Positions 52,001-61,915 of a DNA stretch of 64,000 bases are shown piece by piece. Positions within the stretch are counted from its first letter, which is position 1, and each line of letters begins with the position of its first letter. Under the pieces are notes generated by a model. It worked only from the letters and a program-made list of their open reading frames with translations. It was not told the origin of the DNA and did no database searches. Both the position numbers and the translations under genes were made by a program. This stretch comes from Candidatus Microthrix parvicella Bio17-1 (lineage in GTDB: Bacteria; Actinomycetota; Acidimicrobiia; Acidimicrobiales; Microtrichaceae): contig NZ_AMPG01000004.1 in the NCBI RefSeq assembly GCF_000299415.1, positions 62,001 to 126,000 of the forward strand, read 5' to 3'.

Positions 52001-52177
52001 CGGAAGCGGCGCCGATGCCGAAGGAGTGTCACGGCGGCACCGTAGCGACTTGGAGGCCGTCGTCGAAGAATGGTCTTCCAACGATCGAGCGGCGCGGCGC
52101 CGGCAAGGTGGCGGGCTGGGGGTTGTGGCGAACCTCCGGTAGGTTCCTGCGTCCATTCGACGATCACCGGGACGGCG

Positions 52178-52441
52178 ATGAAGCGATTCGAAGAGCTCTT
52201 TGGTGAGCTCCAGACCAAGGTGGCTGCGGGCGACCCTGACTCCGGCACGGTGGCGGCGGTGGCCGCCGGGCCTCACGAGGTGGGCAAGAAGTTGGTGGAG
52301 GAGGCGGCCGAGGTGTGGATGGCGGCCGAGCACGAGGGCCCCGCACGGACCGCTGAGGAGATCAGCCAGTTGCTCTATCACCTGCAGGTGATGATGCTGG
52401 CCACCGGCTTGAGCCTGGAGGACGTGTATGCCCACCTCTGA
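52178..52441 (+). CDS. hisE: phosphoribosyl-ATP pyrophosphatase
   Basis: An 87-residue HisE, the second step of histidine biosynthesis, hydrolysing phosphoribosyl-ATP to phosphoribosyl-AMP. It shows the all-alpha MazG-like pattern with [17 protein letters not shown] and [14 protein letters not shown], the metal-binding Glu pair. The start ATG at 52178 is preceded by a purine-rich GGGACGG. The 3' end overlaps hisG by 14 bp, so the two genes are coupled. Confidence 0.95.
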
Positions 52442-53336
52442 GCCGTCCACCGCTGAGCCGTCCACCGCGAACCTGACGGGGGCCGACCCGAAGGCACCAA
52501 TGCGGGTGGCGCTGCCCAACAAGGGGGCCCTCTCCGAGGAGGCCGCCGAGCTGATGAGTGAGGCCGGCTACCGCCTGGGCCGCTCGGGCAAGGCGTTGCG
52601 GGTGTACGACCGGGATGAGTCGGTGGAGTTTCTCTTTCTGCGTCCCCGGGACATCGCCATCTACGTGGGCAGCGGCGTGATCGACCTGGGGATCACCGGG
52701 CGCGACCTGTCCAGCGACAGCCAGGCGCCGGTGGACGAGGTGTTGTCGCTGGGCTTCGGAAAGGCCGAGTTTCGTCTGGCCGCTCCTGCCGGTTCCGGAT
52801 TCGCGCTGGTTGACGGGGCCCGAATTGCCACCTCCTACGACGGGCTCCTGGGCGCCTACCTGACGAAACAGCGCGTGGAGGCGTCGATCATCCACCTGGA
52901 CGGCGCCGTCGAACTGGCGCCCAGCCTGGGCGTGGCCGACGCGGTGGCCGACGTGGTGCAGTCGGGCCGCACCATGGCCGACGCGGGCCTGGAACTGATC
53001 GGCGAGCCGCTGCTCGCCTCGGAGGCCGTGCTGATCACCCAGCGCGGGCGGAAGCCCGACGAGGCCGCCCGGGTCATGGTCGAACGCCTCCGCGGCGTGG
53101 TGGTGGCCGCCGAGTACCTGATGGTGGAGTACGACCTGCCTGCGGAACTGATGGCGGAGGCCACGGCGGTGGCCCCGGGCATGGAGGGCGTCACCGTGAC
53201 GCCCCTGGCGCGCGAGGGCTGGGTGGCGATCCGGGTGATGGTGGCCAAGGCCGAGGCCAACGTCGTCATGGACTCGTTGTCCCGCATCGGAGCGAAGGCG
53301 ATCCTTGCCAGCGATCTGCGGACCTGCCGGCTGTAG
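52428..53336 (+). CDS. hisG: ATP phosphoribosyltransferase (long form)
   Basis: A 302-residue HisG, the first and feedback-regulated enzyme of histidine biosynthesis. The catalytic half has [14 protein letters not shown] and DLGITGRDL and the pyrophosphate-like loop [14 protein letters not shown]. The C-terminal part ([35 protein letters not shown]) is the regulatory ACT-like domain that binds histidine in the long form. The N-terminal 25 residues are a low-complexity extension coded by a 15-bp repeat, so the true start may be the internal Met at 52500. It overlaps hisE. Confidence 0.95.
52440..52469 (+). repeat. two-copy 15-bp repeat at the hisG start
   Basis: GAGCCGTCCACCGCT occurs twice (52440, and 52455 with one change), coding [10 protein letters not shown] just after the hisG start. 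Confidence 0.85.
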
Positions 53337-53342
53337 CCGTCG

Positions 53343-54524
53343 CTAACCGTCGCGCCGGTCGGCCGTGAGATCGGTGCAGGTTCGGAGGGCGTTCCAGTCG
53401 TTCATCAGGCCCCGATAGGGCCGTACGTCCGGCGGGACGGGTATCGGCTGTGCGTCATCGTTGATCACCGCCGGGATCCAGCGGTAGCCGTCGATGCGGC
53501 GGCCGGTGGCCGTGACCTCCAGCAGTCCGCTGTGGCTCGCAGCCGGGGAACTGGCCGAGAACAAGAAGTTGCCCAGGCCGTAGCCGACCAGCGCCGAGCC
53601 GTAAAAACCGGCGCCACCCACGCGGTGTTGGTGGCCCCCGACGACGATGTCGGCGCCGGCCTCGGAGAGCGCGTCGGCCAGCGCCAACTGGACATCGGTG
53701 GGACACGGCACGTACTGGGTACCCCTGTGGATGAGCACCACCACCGTGTCGGCATCGGTGCGGGCGGCCCGAACGGCCTCGACGAGACGGTCGACCCGTT
53801 TGGCCGACGACAAACCGGGCTGAGAATCGGTGGCGGTCCAGGTTTTGACCAGCTGTGAATCGATGACCTCGGTGGTGCCGAGCACGGCGATGCGTTGCCC
53901 GTTCACCTCGAAGACGTGCGGGGCGTAGGCGGCCGCCTCATCCCGCCCGATGCCCACCACGGGGAAACCGTCGGCGTCGATCGCATCGAGGCTCTGGGCC
54001 AGGCCGTCGACGCCAAAATCGACGGCGTGGTTGTTGGCCATCGACACGCCGTCCACCCCCGCAGCGCGAAGCGCATCGAACACCTCGGGTCCGGTGGAGA
54101 ACGTGAACTCCTTGTCTTCGGGAGTGGCCGGGCCGGTGGTGATGGCGGTCTCCAGGTTCAGCAATGCCAGGTCGGCACCCGTGAGTTGCTCGGTGATCGG
54201 CCCGAAGACCGAAGCCGGGTCGGCCTCCAGCAACTTGACGCTGGGGCCCCGGATGGCCGTGTCGCCGCCAAAGACCATGGTGACCGCCTGTCCGGAACCC
54301 GTGCTGGGGGCGACGGGCGAGGTGGGCGAGGCGGTGGCCGACCCCGGGTTCGCCGTCGTCGGTGCCGAGGAGGCCGTCGAACCGGGCGATCGGTTCGCTC
54401 CGGAGCAGGCGGCGAGCAGGACGGCGAGCACGACGCTCGCCGCCGCCCGAGCCGTCGCGCCCGTGAGCGGCGCTGGAGCGAAACGTCGGTGGCGCACGCG
54501 TCGAACGACCCGCTCAGCAGCCAA
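53343..54524 (-). CDS. CapA-family protein 1 (predicted lipoprotein)
   Basis: A 393-residue member of the CapA/PgsA metallophosphatase-like family. The N-terminus has a hydrophobic stretch ending in a lipobox (LLAAC), then a Ser/Thr/Pro-rich linker. The domain begins MVFGGDTAIRG (metal Asp) and has LALLNLETAI, SMANNHAVDFG, HRGTQYVPCP and IVVGGHQHRV with GYGLGNFLF. These match the dinuclear-metal-binding motifs of the family, first named for poly-gamma-glutamate synthesis, though many members have other roles. It ends the CapA-M18-CapA operon. Confidence 0.88.
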   Translation of the reverse strand: MAAERVVRRVRHRRFAPAPLTGATARAAASVVLAVLLAACSGANRSPGSTASSAPTTANPGSATASPTSPVAPSTGSGQAVTMVFGGDTAIRGPSVKLLEADPASVFGPITEQLTGADLALLNLETAITTGPATPEDKEFTFSTGPEVFDALRAAGVDGVSMANNHAVDFGVDGLAQSLDAIDADGFPVVGIGRDEAAAYAPHVFEVNGQRIAVLGTTEVIDSQLVKTWTATDSQPGLSSAKRVDRLVEAVRAARTDADTVVVLIHRGTQYVPCPTDVQLALADALSEAGADIVVGGHQHRVGGAGFYGSALVGYGLGNFLFSASSPAASHSGLLEVTATGRRIDGYRWIPAVINDDAQPIPVPPDVRPYRGLMNDWNALRTCTDLTADRRDG

Positions 54525-55902
54525 GCCAGGAGGCCAGCAGCCGGGCCAACGGTTGAATGTCGTCGACCGCCATCAGCTCGCGTGCCGAGTGCATCGACAA
54601 CTGAGGTGCGCCCACGTCGACCACACCAACGCCCAGCGAGGCGGCCAGGGTGGGGCCGATGGTGGAGCCACATGGCAGGTCGCCCCGGTGGGAGTACGTC
54701 TGGAGGTTCACACCCGCCCCTGCGGCGGCGCGCTGCAACAAGGCGGCCGTTCGGGCGTCGGAGGCGTAGCGCTGGTTGGAGTTGACCTTGAGGGCCGGGC
54801 CGGCGCCGGGAGCGATGTGGTGACCCGGCTCGTGGCGGTCGACGTAGTTGGGGTGGGTGGCGTGTGCCATGTCGGCCGAGGCGATCACCGTGCCGCCCAT
54901 GGCAGCGCCCACTGCCGGGCCGCCGGGTGTGGCAGCGGCGCCCTCGTCCGCCGAGAGGATCACGGCCTCGACGAGTCGAACGATCGCTGCGGAGGCCGCA
55001 CCCACGCCACTGGTGGACCCCACCTCCTCGTGGTCGGCCAGGATCAACATCGGCACCGTGGCGGCGTCGCTCGCAGCGGGCGAGGATGCGGCCTGAACCA
55101 TGGCGTTGACGCCGGCCCAGGCCGAGCAGAGGTTGTCCAGCCGCGGAGCCGCGAGGAGCTCGCGGCGCCTGCCGAGGAGTGCCGGCGGGGTGAGGTCGTG
55201 GGTCATCAGATCCCAAGCGAGGATCAGGCTGGGATCGACCTCGAGCTCCTCGGCCAGCCAGCCCTTGAAACCGGCGCCATCAGCGGCAGCTCCGACGGAG
55301 GTGGGGGCGGGGGCGCCCCCGCCGTGGGCGATGCCCCACACCGGGGTGAGGTGCTGTTGGGCGTTCAGCTTGAGGCCGTCGGTGTGGATCTCCCGGTCGA
55401 GGTGGATCGCCAGTTGGGGCACCCGCAGCAACGGTTCGTCCCAGCGCACCTCCCGCATCGTGATCCCCTCGCGGGAGGTTGGATGGTCAGACGCCGGATC
55501 ATCGGTGGCAACTGGCTGGGCGATGGCGACCCGGCCCGACAATCCGAGGTCACGGTCGAGCCAACTGTTGAGCAACGCGCCGCCGTAGACCTCGACGCCC
55601 AACTGCTGCCATCCGGCCACCGAACGATCGGGCTGCGGCCGGACGCGCAGGTTGGGGCTGTCGGTGTGTGCTCCGACGATGCGCAGCGGGGCGTCTGCCG
55701 CCTGGCCACGGCGACACCAGGCCGCAACGAAACCCTCGTGGCGCACCACCACCGGACCTTCCGCCGGGAACGGAGCGCCCCATCGGCTTGACGTGAACCC
55801 GGCGGCCACCAGGCGTCGGGTGGCCTCGCCGGCCGCATGGTAGGGAGAAGGTGAAGCCTCGATGAACCGAATCAGGTCATCGGTGGTGGTGGGGTTGCCC
55901 AT
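54514..55902 (-). CDS. M18 family aminopeptidase (aspartyl aminopeptidase)
   Basis: A 462-residue zinc aminopeptidase of the M18 family. Metal and catalytic motifs: GAHTDSPNLRVRP (His-x-Asp), LADHEEVGS (Glu-Glu) and a C-terminal MHSARELMAVDD His ligand region. It removes N-terminal acidic residues in known family members. It overlaps both neighbours: its start (55902) shares bases with the stop of CapA2, and its end runs 11 bp into CapA1, so all three are likely one operon. Confidence 0.92.
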   Translation of the reverse strand: MGNPTTTDDLIRFIEASPSPYHAAGEATRRLVAAGFTSSRWGAPFPAEGPVVVRHEGFVAAWCRRGQAADAPLRIVGAHTDSPNLRVRPQPDRSVAGWQQLGVEVYGGALLNSWLDRDLGLSGRVAIAQPVATDDPASDHPTSREGITMREVRWDEPLLRVPQLAIHLDREIHTDGLKLNAQQHLTPVWGIAHGGGAPAPTSVGAAADGAGFKGWLAEELEVDPSLILAWDLMTHDLTPPALLGRRRELLAAPRLDNLCSAWAGVNAMVQAASSPAASDAATVPMLILADHEEVGSTSGVGAASAAIVRLVEAVILSADEGAAATPGGPAVGAAMGGTVIASADMAHATHPNYVDRHEPGHHIAPGAGPALKVNSNQRYASDARTAALLQRAAAGAGVNLQTYSHRGDLPCGSTIGPTLAASLGVGVVDVGAPQLSMHSARELMAVDDIQPLARLLASWLGC

Positions 55903-57140
55903 CAGGACACCGGCTGGGGTTCGGCGGTTGCCGCATCGGTGAGGCCGGTGCAGCCGCGCAGCTCATTCCACGATGCGGTCAGGTTCTGTGCCGCTGCGGC
56001 GTCGGCCGGGATGGGCTGATTGGCGCCGTTGATGAGCGCCGGCACCCATTCGTAGTTGTCGATGTGCCGACCGGTGGCCGTGACCTTCAGCACGCCGGAC
56101 CGGCGGCCCAGGTCGGAGTTGGCCTGAAAAAGAAAGTTGCCCAGGCCGTACCCCACGAACGCGGCGCCGGAGAAGCCACCTGACATCACCCGGTGGGCGT
56201 GCCCGCCAACCACGATGTCGGCCCCGGCGGCGGTCAGCTTGGGGGTCAACGACTGTTGGGCCTCGTTCGGACAGGTTTGGGTTTCGGTGCCCCAGTGCAG
56301 GAACACGATGACGGTGTCCGCATTCTTGCGAGCCTCGCTCACGGCCTGAACGAGCCGATCCTCGCGCTTGGCCGAGGCCAGACCGGCATGGTCGGCGGTG
56401 GCGGTCCAACTTTGGATGAACGAGCCGTCGAGCACCTGGGTGGCGGCGATGACCGCAAGGCGCTGACCGTTCACCTCGGCGATGTGGGGGGCGAAGGCCT
56501 CGGCGTCGTTTGCACCCATACCGATGATCGGGAAGCCGACCTCGTCGCGGACCTGGAGCGACTCTGCGAAGCCGGATTCCCCGTAGTCCATACCGTGGTT
56601 GTTGGCCATGGACACCACGTCGATACCGGCGGCCTTGATGGCGTCAAACGCCCGAGGCCCGGTACTGAACGTGAACTGCTTGCCCACCGGCGATCCGCCA
56701 CCCTTGGTGACCGCCGTCTCGAGGTTGGCGACCGTGAGGTCGGCGCTGGAGAGGATGTCGGTGACCGGCCCGAAGACCGACGCCGGATCGGCATCCAACC
56801 GGGATCCGGTGGGCCCCTCGAAGTTCATGTCGCCTGCAAAGGCGATGGTCACCGGCTTGCCCGATCCAAGGATCGGGTCGCGCCCGTCGTCGGGCTTGGT
56901 GGTGGTGGTGATCGCGGCCTCTCCGCCGGTTGAACCCGGCGCCTTGGCCGTTTTGGCGTCGGAGGGCGTGGCACCGGCGGACTCCGCCGGCGTCGAAGCG
57001 CCGGTCGCCTCGGAGGCCGTCACGTCCGCTGACGTCGTGCCACCACAGGCGACCAGGGACAGGCCGCCAAACAGCATCAGGGCGAGCGCCCCGCGGGGGA
57101 GGGGCGGGTTGTGAGCAGGCCGGGGGTGCTTGAACGCCAT
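55902..57140 (-). CDS. CapA-family protein 2 (predicted lipoprotein)
   Basis: A 412-residue paralogue of the CapA protein two genes downstream. The N-terminus has a hydrophobic core and a lipobox (LVAC); a Ser/Thr/Ala-rich linker follows. The catalytic fold has IAFAGDMNFEG, LTVANLETAV, SMANNHGMDYG, HWGTETQTCP and IVVGGHAHRV with GYGLGNFLF. The two copies are clearly similar over their whole domains, pointing to local duplication around the M18 gene. It is the first gene of the operon. Confidence 0.88.
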   Translation of the reverse strand: MAFKHPRPAHNPPLPRGALALMLFGGLSLVACGGTTSADVTASEATGASTPAESAGATPSDAKTAKAPGSTGGEAAITTTTKPDDGRDPILGSGKPVTIAFAGDMNFEGPTGSRLDADPASVFGPVTDILSSADLTVANLETAVTKGGGSPVGKQFTFSTGPRAFDAIKAAGIDVVSMANNHGMDYGESGFAESLQVRDEVGFPIIGMGANDAEAFAPHIAEVNGQRLAVIAATQVLDGSFIQSWTATADHAGLASAKREDRLVQAVSEARKNADTVIVFLHWGTETQTCPNEAQQSLTPKLTAAGADIVVGGHAHRVMSGGFSGAAFVGYGLGNFLFQANSDLGRRSGVLKVTATGRHIDNYEWVPALINGANQPIPADAAAAQNLTASWNELRGCTGLTDAATAEPQPVS

Positions 57141-57304
57141 CCTCCGACTCTACTGAATGGGGCGCTTGGGGGGCCTTCGGCAGCGGGCCCCGGCGGTGAG
57201 GGGCCAAGTGGTCGGCTGGAGGCTGGGCGCGTCGATCGATAGTATGGGTGAGCCGGGCCAACGTCGTCCCGAGCCGTCCCTCGCTCTCGCTTGGAAGGCT
57301 CCAG

Positions 57305-60300
57305 ATGGACCGTCACGTTGCCGCCGCCCACGGGCTGTACGCCCCCGACTACGAACACGACGCATGTGGAGTCAGCTTTGTGGTCGACCTCCAGGGTCGT
57401 CGATCACATCGTCTCGTCCAGCAGGCCCTGACGTCGCTCGAGAACCTGGAGCACCGCGGTGCAACCGGGGCCGAGGAGAACACCGGCGACGGCGCAGGGA
57501 TCCTCATCGGCGTTCCCGACCGCCTGATCCGCGCCGTCGTCGACGCCGAGTTGCCTGAGGCCGGCCACTACGCCGTTGGAATCGGGTTCCTCCCGACCGA
57601 TCCGACAGCGGCGCGAGCAGCGATCGATCACATCGAGGCGCTGGTGGCCGATGAGGGCCTAAGGACGGTTGCCTGGCGGGACGTGCCGATCGATGCGTCG
57701 ATGATCGGCGGTTGGGCCCGGGAGGTCATGCCGCAGTTCAGAATGCTGATCGTTGCCGATCGCAGCGATCGTGCGGGCGGACCCCGTGGTGGCATCGACC
57801 TGGACCGGGCGGTCTATCCGCTGCGTAAGCGAATTGAGCACGAACCGGCTGACGGACCCGAGTCGGAGGTGTACTTCGCCAGCCTGTCGTCGCGCACCCT
57901 GGTGTACAAGGGCATGTTGACCACCCCCCAGCTGCGAGGCTTCTTTGGGGACCTCACCGACGAACGCACCGAGTCGGCGCTGGGCCTGGTGCACAGCCGG
58001 TTTTCCACCAACACCTTTCCGTCGTGGCCACTGGCCCACCCCTACCGGTACGTGGCCCACAACGGCGAGATCAACACCGTGCAGGGCAACCAAAACTGGA
58101 TGCGTGCCCGCGAGGCCATGTTGCGAACCGACCTGATCGAGGGGGACCTCAACCGGCTCTTCCCCATCTGCACGCCCGGGGCCAGCGACACCGCCCGGTT
58201 TGACGAGGCGCTGGAGCTGCTGCACCTGGGCGGCTACAGCCTGCCCCACGCCGTGCTGATGATGATCCCCGAGGCGTGGGAGAACCACGAGTCGATGGAC
58301 CCCAGCCTGAGGGCCTTTTACAAGTACCACTCCTGCCTGATGGAGCCGTGGGACGGACCGGCGTCGATCACCTTCACCGACGGCACCCTGGTGGGCGCCG
58401 TACTGGACCGCAACGGGCTGCGGCCCAGCCGCTACTGGGTAACCGAGGACGGCCTGGTGGTGATGGCCTCTGAGGTGGGCACGCTGGATCTCGACCCCAC
58501 CACGATCGTTCGCAAGGGACGCCTTCAGCCGGGGCGCATGTTTCTGATCGACACCGAGGCAGGGCGGATCGTCGAGGATGCCGAGATCAAGGCCGAACTG
58601 GCCAACGCACACCCGTACCAGCAGTGGCTGGACGCCGGGCTCATCGACCTGGAGGCATTGCCGACCAAGCCCCACGTCACCGAACGCCCGTTGGACACGC
58701 TGCGGGCCCAGCAGGTCTTCGGCTACACGTTGGAGGAGATCCGGCTGCTGCTCACCCCGATGGCGCGCAACGGCAAGGAGGCGCTGGGCTCGATGGGCAC
58801 CGATACCCCCATTGCGGTGCTGTCGGACCGGTCCCGGTTGTTGTACGACTACTTCAGCCAGTTGTTCGCCCAGGTGACCAACCCGCCGCTGGATGCCATT
58901 CGGGAGCAGTTGGTGACCAGCCTCGGCAAGGTGTTTGGGCCCGAAGGCAACGTGTTGGACCTGTCACCCTCCGACGCCGAGCTGATCGAGTTGCCCTACC
59001 CGGTGCTGCACAACGATCAGCTGCGAAAGCTGCGCGAGCTGGACGACACCGAACCCCACGGGTTTCGTAGCCGGGTGCTGTACACGCACTTCAGCGTGGC
59101 GGACGGTGGCACTGGGCTTGCCGCCGCCCTGGAGCGACTTCGCGCCGAGGTGTCGACGGCGGTGGACGACGGCGTCAACGTGGTGATCCTGTCCGACCGG
59201 TTCTCCACCGCGGACCGGGCTCCCATCCCGATGCTGCTGGCCACCTCGGCGGTGCATCATCACCTGGTTCGTACCAAGCAGCGCACGCGGGTGGGCCTGA
59301 TCGTCGAGAGCGGCGAATGCCGTGAGGTGCATCATTTCGCCACCTTGATCGGCTACGGCGCCGCCGCCGTCAACCCGTACACGGCCTTCGACACGATCGA
59401 GAACCTGGTGGCCGAGGGTCGGCTGGGTGCCCTGGGTTTCGACGAGGCGGTTGACAACTACATCAAGGCCGCCGGTGGGGGCATCCTCAAGGTGATGTCG
59501 AAGATGGGCATTTCGACGGTTGCCTCCTACACGGGCGCGCAGATCTTCGAAGCGATCGGCCTCGGCCACGACGTGGTGGACGAGTACTTCACCGACACGG
59601 TGAGCCGCCTGGGTGGCGTCGGCCTGAACGAGATCGCCGAGTCGGTGAGGCGTCGCCACGCCCGGGCCTGGCCGAATCGGCCCGAAGAATTGGCGCACCG
59701 GCCGCTGGAAGCGGGTGGCGACTACCAGTGGCGCCGGGAGGGCGAGTACCACCTGTTCAACCCGAAGACGGTGTTCAAGCTGCAACACGCCACCCGGTCG
59801 AAGAGCTACGCCATCTTCAAGGAGTACACGTCGCTGGTGAACGACCAGTCGGAGCGCCTGGCCACCCTGCGAGGTCTGTTCACGCTCGACACCGAGGCCC
59901 GGCCGTCGATCCCACTCGATGAGGTCGAGCCGGTGGCGTCGATCGTCAAGCGGTTCTCCACCGGGGCGATGAGCTACGGCTCGATCTCGGCAGAGGCACA
60001 CCAAACCCTGGCCATCGCCATGAACCGGCTTGGGGCCAAGTCCAACACGGGCGAGGGCGGCGAGGACGCAGATCGCTATCTGCCCGACGCCAACGGTGAT
60101 GACCGGCGCTCGGCGATCAAGCAGGTCGCCTCGGGACGTTTCGGTGTGACGTCCCACTACCTGACCAATGCGGACGACATCCAGATCAAAATGGCGCAGG
60201 GTGCCAAACCTGGCGAGGGTGGACAGCTTCCCGGCCACAAGGTGTATCCGTGGATTGCCAACACCCGCCATTCAACGCCGGGCGTCGGTCTGATCAGCCC

Positions 60301-61915
60301 GCCCCCGCATCACGACATCTACTCGATCGAAGACCTGGCCCAACTGATTCACGACTTGAAGAACGCCAACCCGGTGGCCAGGGTGCACGTGAAGCTGGTG
60401 GCCGAGGTGGGCGTGGGCACCGTGGCGGCCGGCGTGGCCAAGGCCAAGGCGGATGTCGTGCTGATCTCCGGCCACGACGGTGGCACCGGCGCCAGCCCGC
60501 TGACCTCGCTGAAGCACGCCGGTGCACCCTGGGAGCTCGGCCTGGCCGAGACCCAGCAGACGTTGCTGATCAACGGGCTGCGCGACCGCATCGTCGTGCA
60601 GGCCGATGGCCAGCTGAAGACCGGCCGTGACGTGATGATCGCAGCGCTACTGGGCGCCGAGGAGTTTGGGTTTGCCACCGCACCGCTGGTGGTCTCCGGC
60701 TGCGTCATGATGCGGGTGTGTCACCTGGACACGTGCCCGGTGGGGATCGCCACCCAGAACCCGGAGTTGCGGGCGCGCTACAGCGGCCAGGCCGATCACG
60801 TGGTGAACTTCATGGAGTTCATTGCCGAAGAGGTGCGCGAACTGCTCGCCGAGCTTGGCTTTGCCACCCTCGAGGATGCTGTTGGCCACGCGGAGCTGAT
60901 CGACGCACGGCCTGCAGTCACTCATTGGAAGGCGAGAGGTTTGGACCTGTCGCCCATCCTGTTTCGGCCCGAACCGGCCATGGGCACCGAGATCCATCAC
61001 ACCACCGATCAGGATCACGGCCTGGACCGGGCGCTCGACAACACGCTGATCGAGTTGGCCCGGGGCGCGATCGCCGACGCCGTGCCGGTGCACCTGACGT
61101 TGCCGATCCGCAACGTCAACCGCACGGTGGGCACCATGCTTGGACACGAGGTCACCAAGGCCTGGGGCGCCGACGGCCTGCCCGATGACACCGTGCACGT
61201 CGACTTCACCGGGTCGGCCGGCAACAGCTTCGGAGCGTTTCTGCCCCGCGGCATCACCCTGGCCCTGTGCGGGGACGCCAACGACTATGTCGGCAAGGGC
61301 CTGTCCGGGGGCCACCTGGTGGTGCGCCCACCGCTGGAGGTCCACCCGGGTTTCGTCGCCGAAGCCAACATCATCGCCGGCAACGTCATGGCCTACGGGG
61401 CCACGGGCGGCGAGATCTTCGCCCGGGGCGTGGTGGGGGAGCGCTGCTGCGTTCGCAACTCGGGTGCCCTCGTGGTGACCGAGGGCGTGGGTGATCACGG
61501 CTGCGAGTACATGACCGGTGGACGGGCCGTCATCCTCGGGCCGACGGGCCGCAACTTTGGCGCCGGCATGTCGGGCGGCATCGCCTATGTGTGGGACCCC
61601 GATGCCCAACTTGGGCTCAACCACAACCCCGAAATGGTGGAGCTGACACGTCTCGATGACAGAACGGTCGGCGATGATGCCGGGCAGGCCGGGGACGGAG
61701 CGTTTCTGCGCGAGGTCCTCGAACGCCACCGTGCATTGACCGACTCGGCGGTGGCAGCCCGGCTGCTCGACCGCTGGGCGGAGGCCGTCGGCGAGTTCGT
61801 CAAGGTGATGCCCACCGATTACCGGCGGGTGTTGGACGTGACGGCCAAGGCAGCGGCGGACGGGCTGGACACCGACGCAACCCTCGAGGCCGTCATGGCC
61901 GCAGCACGAAGTTAA
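57305..61915 (+). CDS. gltB: glutamate synthase, large subunit
   Basis: A 1536-residue NADPH-type GOGAT alpha subunit. The N-terminal glutaminase domain has its nucleophile Cys21 (HDACGVSFV), exposed after removal of a short propeptide, and [15 protein letters not shown]. The central and FMN-binding synthase domains follow, with the 3Fe-4S cluster motif [19 protein letters not shown]. The C-terminal beta-helix has several GxGxG-like repeats ([11 protein letters not shown]). With GltD it makes glutamate from glutamine and 2-oxoglutarate. ATG at 57305 is chosen because it gives the family propeptide. Confidence 0.97.

What the first reader, a model, noticed from the sequence alone, without database searches (positions are those of the whole stretch)
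53343..57140. CapA-aminopeptidase-CapA operon
Two paralogous CapA-type lipoproteins enclose an M18 aspartyl aminopeptidase, with overlapping reading frames. M18 enzymes remove acidic residues and CapA proteins were first linked to poly-gamma-glutamate, so a surface acidic-peptide pathway is conceivable. The peptidase has no signal sequence, which argues for a more indirect link.
Basis: inference. Interest (0 to 1): 0.5.

Follow-up and report, generated by a model that had tools for sequence, protein, structure and literature searches.

The report
CapA–aminopeptidase operon with duplicated CapA
A bacterium carries a common surface-protein gene joined in one probable operon with an ordinary protein-recycling enzyme, plus a second copy of the surface gene made by a local duplication; the pair is shared by part of its bacterial family, and nothing found points to a polyglutamate coat.

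Summary
The three genes are real and in the stated order: CapA-1 (55902-57140, minus), M18 aspartyl aminopeptidase (54514-55902), CapA-2 (53343-54524). Both CapAs carry lipobox signals and are 53% identical over 351 aa; the peptidase has no signal.

The trio is not seen elsewhere; the CapA-1–M18 pair is. CapA lies directly upstream of M18 in 20 of 29 M18-bearing genomes of the family; 7 have M18 beside gltB without CapA; 2 end at contig edges. Stop and start codons can overlap in 14 of 20 pairs checked. Outside the family one further pair was seen (G037). CapA-2 is CapA-1's sister (99/96): a duplication in this lineage.

PgsC and PgsB profiles find nothing in this genome while B. subtilis rings, so a polyglutamate pathway is not supported.

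Most likely: an exported, metal-dependent protein of the CapA/PgsA/MslH kind, co-translated with a housekeeping acidic aminopeptidase next to gltB, the functional link being loose. CapA-2 keeps the metal-ligand residues but has W283R and E286Q. Ordinary, mildly interesting.

The parts
55902..57140 (-). CapA-1: PGA_cap (PF09587) lipoprotein, 412 aa, first gene of the probable operon
   Evidence: model mean pLDDT 82.7; nearest solved fold MslH, Z 39
57045..57056 (-). lipobox LVAC of CapA-1
55902..55902 (-). base shared by CapA-1 stop and M18 start (TGATG); translational coupling likely
54514..55902 (-). M18 aspartyl aminopeptidase, 462 aa, no signal peptide; conserved His/Asp/Glu residues present
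53343..54524 (-). CapA-2: paralogue of CapA-1, 393 aa from TTG (alternative start GTG 54497)
   Evidence: sister of CapA-1 in the tree
54405..54416 (-). lipobox LAAC of CapA-2
   Evidence: read by eye from the translation
57248..61915 (+). gltB (glutamate synthase large chain), divergent neighbour; name recalled from the sequence, not profiled here
   Evidence: ORF; next to CapA or M18 in relatives
52428..53336 (+). hisG-like gene, convergent neighbour of CapA-2; name recalled from the sequence, not profiled here
   Evidence: no match in 40 relatives' stretches

Best explanation
CapA-1 and the M18 aminopeptidase form a two-gene, probably translationally coupled operon, divergent from gltB, that is inherited within one actinobacterial family (probably Acidimicrobiia, inferred from titles of named relatives) and is missing from part of it. 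CapA-1 is exported and lipid-anchored and is most likely a metal-dependent enzyme acting on peptides, of the PgsA/MslH kind. M18 stays in the cytosol and clips N-terminal Asp/Glu from peptides. The two are co-expressed; any functional link is loose (peptide and glutamate housekeeping). CapA-2 is a local duplicate of CapA-1 gained in this lineage; it keeps the metal-ligand residues but has changed two residues of a conserved active-site motif, so it probably acts on a different substrate or as an accessory. Shown: gene content, overlap, distribution in the genomes sampled, sisterhood of the CapAs, ligand conservation, predicted fold. Inferred: enzymatic activity, co-transcription, the nature of the link, the direction of gain and loss.
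For: CapA directly upstream of M18 in 20 of 29 M18-bearing family genomes. A 4-nt stop/start overlap is possible in 13 of 20 pair loci checked and a 1-nt overlap is present in the window. G037, outside the family, has the pair with a possible 4-nt overlap and no gltB match in its 19-kb stretch. M18 kept without adjacent CapA in 7 of 29, and 5 changes of the pair label on the M18 tree (at least 4 forced by well-supported branches), argue against an obligate partnership. CapA-1/CapA-2 sisterhood 99/96. Fold: MslH Z 39 over 299 residues at 2.1 A, next YmdB Z 19. D104, E141, N181, H182, D185, H282, H314, H316 are present in both CapAs.
Against: No transcript or activity data. The neighbourhood is partly syntenic in the family anyway: a UbiB-like gene lies in 13 of 28 relatives' M18 stretches and a DnaJ gene in the two stretches profiled for it, so the linkage may be passive. 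M18-gltB adjacency without CapA is found in 11 of 20 non-family loci of the M18 set. Co-occurrence of the two families over genomes is not significant (Fisher p 0.051 in 28 order-level and 0.19 in 33 family genomes, uncorrected for relatedness). Five of the 20 pairs checked have a gap of 3 to 77 nt rather than an overlap.
Confidence: 0.58

Rival explanations
1. Neighbourhood by descent only: CapA sits in a slowly rearranging gltB-M18 block and has no functional relation to the peptidase.
For: A UbiB-like gene also lies near M18 in 13 of 28 relatives' stretches; gltB-M18 adjacency without CapA occurs outside the family; CapA is missing repeatedly; CapAs of the same subfamily elsewhere lie by unrelated genes: TetR, catalase, dehydrogenase/hydrolase, transglutaminase, patatin, glucoamylase-type, glyoxalase (ORFs chosen by composition).
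Against: Overlapping stop and start codons occur across pairs whose proteins are only about 43-56% identical to the window's, and the pair exists away from gltB in G037.
Confidence: 0.28
2. A poly-gamma-glutamate-like surface polymer is made and trimmed by these genes.
For: CapA is the Pfam family of PgsA; M18 enzymes prefer acidic residues (recalled).
Against: No PgsC (TIGR04011, PF14102) and no PgsB (TIGR04012) match in the own genome, B. subtilis control positive. PMC6029982 (passages) reports that PgsB and PgsC are needed and PgsA is not; it also cites earlier work that found all three essential. M18 has no signal, and its alpha-peptide specificity (recalled) does not fit gamma bonds.
Confidence: 0.03
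3. CapA-1/2 are surface metallophosphoesterases or nucleotidases rather than peptide epimerases (a rival on the chemistry; compatible with the operon reading).
For: Ligand residues fit a two-metal site (D104, E141, N181, H282, H314, H316), whereas MslH has Gly at the H314 position and an extra His at the G284 position; weak NCBIfam matches to SoxB and nucleotidases for CapA-2 and fold similarity to YmdB and 5'-nucleotidases.
Against: The closest fold by far is the peptide epimerase MslH, and PgsA is reported to epimerise Glu (passage in PMC7168211).
Confidence: 0.25

Closest known systems
PgsA/CapA of poly-gamma-glutamate synthesis (PF09587)
   Same: same Pfam family; exported and anchored
   Different: no PgsB or PgsC found in this genome; the operon partner is a peptidase
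MslH lasso-peptide epimerase (8gq9 and others; PMC10406935, passages read)
   Same: closest solved fold (Z 39, 2.1 A, 26% identity over 299 residues); equivalents of D11, E44, N87, H88, D91, H259, H295 are kept
   Different: MslH binds one Ca with H261; here that position is Gly, and His stands at the MslH Gly293 position, giving a two-metal ligand set; MslH's equivalog score is far from reached
M18 aspartyl aminopeptidases (NF002759; solved relatives 7u5h, 3var, 3wt4)
   Same: nearly full-length match, conserved active-site residues
   Different: a CapA gene is the operon partner in part of one family

Membership tests
M18 aspartyl aminopeptidase | nearly full-length PF02127 and NF002759 match over the curated cut-offs | tested here: met
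M18 aspartyl aminopeptidase | conserved metal and active-site His/Asp/Glu (roles recalled) | tested here: met
   H79, D256, E292, E293, D344 invariant in 17 sequences; H438 in 90% or more
M18 aspartyl aminopeptidase | cleavage of N-terminal Asp/Glu | not testable with these tools
   needs an assay
CapA / PGA_cap (PF09587) | profile match over the cut-off, nearly full length | tested here: met
   219 and 209 bits against a cut-off of 27
PgsBCA poly-gamma-glutamate synthetase | PgsB and PgsC encoded in the genome | tested here: not met
   genome 95% complete
MslH peptide epimerase (equivalog NF038314) | curated score of 700 bits | tested here: not met
   74 and 73 bits
MslH peptide epimerase | Ca ligand His261 | tested here: not met
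   Gly in CapA-1, CapA-2 and 118 of 119 aligned relative rows
MslH peptide epimerase | His88/Asp91 and His295/Asp11 catalytic pairs | tested here: met
Two-metal metallophosphoesterase | ligand set D, E, N, H, HxH | tested here: met
   against the YmdB ligands listed in PMC10406935
Two-metal metallophosphoesterase | phosphoester hydrolysis | not testable with these tools
   needs an assay
Lipoprotein | N-terminal signal with lipobox Cys | tested here: met
   (pattern) for CapA-1; by eye for CapA-2; no dedicated predictor was run

The most novel reading that the evidence does not exclude
The CapA lipoproteins are extracellular peptide epimerases that invert acidic residues in wall-derived or environmental peptides so that, after uptake, the coupled cytosolic M18 enzyme can remove them. 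The operon would then be a D-/L-acidic-peptide salvage system beside glutamate synthase, with CapA-2 as a second specificity.
Probability: 0.08. Interest if true: 0.55.

Novelty: new member of a known kind. Interest (0 to 1): 0.25.

Why it matters
CapA-family proteins occur in many Actinobacteria, and what they do where PgsB and PgsC are missing is unclear to me. A recurrent coupling to one defined peptidase suggests a substrate class (acidic peptides) that can be tested, and the natural presence or absence of CapA beside M18 in relatives is a ready comparison. As found, it is mostly a tidy case of operon inheritance plus gene duplication.

Tried and rejected
Polyglutamate pathway: dropped after PgsB and PgsC profiles found nothing with a positive control. 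One relative, G032, has two weak CapC-profile matches in one 594-codon frame, not followed up.

Fast evolution of the window's M18: its row has a long branch (1.06; median 0.38), but the window's gltB is also the most divergent of 14, so I dropped it.

Shared partners of CapAs without M18: none common to the sets looked at; TetR, catalase and dehydrogenase/hydrolase neighbours recur in up to 24 of 80 loci, mainly among related genera. One search's output was cut and its clusters include antisense ORFs; I used it only for leads.

CapA–M18 co-occurrence: not significant.

Promoters and terminators: no sigma-70-like site found, terminators near chance; uninformative.

Foldseek alone gives the MslH match at TM 0.60-0.62 (by query length) with rmsd 5.9-8.7 A; the tighter 2.1 A is VIA-align's.

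Literature on a CapA–M18 gene pair: none seen in the listed part (20 of 158 papers listed; 20 of 228; 2 of 2; 10 of 61; 0; 0). The library is open-licence PubMed Central only. Searches served other questions.

Rows left out: the CapA tree holds the two window CapAs and 35 relatives; left out were fragments in G002, G027 and G029 and further copies in G017, G038, G050, G054 and G058 that had no locus then.

Full report
Observation. The window holds, on the minus strand, CapA-1 (57140 to 55902), an M18 aminopeptidase (55902 to 54514) and CapA-2 (54524 to 53343). Pfam assigns PGA_cap to both outer proteins and Peptidase_M18 to the middle one. The CapAs are 53% identical over 351 aa. The own genome shows no other match to either family at E <= 0.001. 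CapA-1 and M18 share one base (TGATG). The M18/CapA-2 overlap depends on a TTG start and is not certain. Lipoboxes are present in both CapAs (by eye for CapA-2); M18 lacks a signal.

Conservation in the family. Of 33 genomes of the family (own included), 29 have M18. CapA lies immediately upstream on the same strand in 20: G000, 002, 003, 004, 007, 008, 009, 010, 012, 014, 015, 019, 020, 021, 023, 026, 027, 029, 030, 031. In G002 and G029 only the C-terminal part of CapA is on the contig with M18; in G012 M18 is split over three frames. Seven have M18 directly beside gltB without CapA (G001, 005, 006, 011, 016, 018, 024), and in two the contig ends just upstream of M18 (G022, G032). Of the seven, G018 and G024 carry a CapA of the same subfamily elsewhere, and G006 two CapAs of another subfamily. 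No family genome other than the own one shows a CapA downstream of M18, but in G005, G019 and G021 the contig ends within 0.5 kb downstream, so these are open.

Conservation outside. Of 28 order-level genomes, 13 have M18 and one (G037) has the pair. In a class-level draw of 119 genomes, which overlaps the earlier set, 20 have an M18 of this type; CapA lies within about 1.5 kb in 2 of these 20 (own and G009). Flanks were up to 7 kb and some were cut by contig ends. So the CapA subfamily is broad and its partnership with M18 is local.

Operon. Of 20 pair loci examined for start and stop codons (19 of the 20 family pairs, G012 not examined, plus G037), 13 allow a 4-nt overlap (four of them with a GTG start), the window has 1 nt, five have gaps of 3 to 77 nt, and one (G029) could not be read. 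This favours translational coupling; transcription was not tested.

History. On the M18 tree the pair label needs 5 changes, at least 4 of them forced by well-supported branches. M18 with gltB within 2.5 kb and no CapA occurs in 11 of 20 non-family loci of that set, and gltB is that close in 20 of 28 relatives' family loci. So the gltB–M18 neighbourhood looks the older one, with CapA placed between them in or near the family ancestor and lost several times (inference; the root is a midpoint and direction is not shown). L167 shows gltB–CapA without M18. CapA-1 and CapA-2 are sisters (99/96), with the longer branch on CapA-2 (0.72 against 0.48). The hisG- and hisE-like genes beyond CapA-2 had no match in 40 relatives' stretches, several of them short, which suggests but does not show that this side was rearranged in the own lineage. 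Second CapA copies of the same subfamily lie close by in L146, L147, L148 and L152, 4 of 80, so local duplication recurs.

Function of CapA. The AlphaFold model (mean pLDDT 82.7; 299 of 412 residues at 90 or more) matches MslH at Z 39 over 299 residues, then YmdB at 19 and nucleotidases at 16 to 17. MslH residues come from passages of PMC10406935, mapped by the sequence alignment. The equivalents of D11, E44, N87, H88, D91, H259 and H295 are kept in both CapAs. The MslH Ca ligand His261 is Gly here, and His (H314) stands where MslH has Gly293, as in two-metal phosphoesterases. In 119 aligned relative rows (35 from the order, some of the other CapA subfamily; 84 from the 80 named loci; at least two rows occur in both sets) H314 is His in 119 and G284 is Gly in 118. 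CapA-2 has R at W283 and Q at E286; among those rows W283 is W in 99 and E286 is E in 113. PMC7168211 (passages) cites a report that PgsA epimerises Glu in the growing polymer; PMC6029982 (passages) found D/L 75/25 with pgsA and 5/95 without, and itself suggests interaction with a racemase or a conformational effect. These favour a peptide-modifying role for the family but do not prove it for this subfamily; the ligand set leaves a phosphoesterase open.

Polyglutamate. PgsC and PgsB profiles find nothing in the own genome with B. subtilis ringing; PF14102 finds nothing in 32 of 33 family genomes.

Verdict. A real, probably translationally coupled CapA–M18 operon found in part of one family and once outside it, plus a CapA duplicate seen only here. 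The trio as such is not a conserved system. Interest is low to moderate.

Noticed in passing
54514-61915 and loci: M18 and gltB lie within 2.5 kb in 11 of 20 non-family and 20 of 28 relatives' family loci: a wider neighbourhood than CapA-M18, possibly tying acidic-peptide breakdown to glutamate synthesis.
   Followed up: partly
52070-53336: hisE/hisG-like genes (names recalled) beyond CapA-2 had no match in 40 relatives' stretches, several short.
   Followed up: no
L146, L147, L148, L152: Second CapA copies of the same subfamily close by in four of 80 named loci.
   Followed up: no
G012:C195:11454-12964 and G024:C15:2650-3896: M18 read in three and two pieces, either assembly error or gene decay.
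   Followed up: no
G032:C305:1121-1984: Two weak CapC-profile matches in one 594-codon frame.
   Followed up: no
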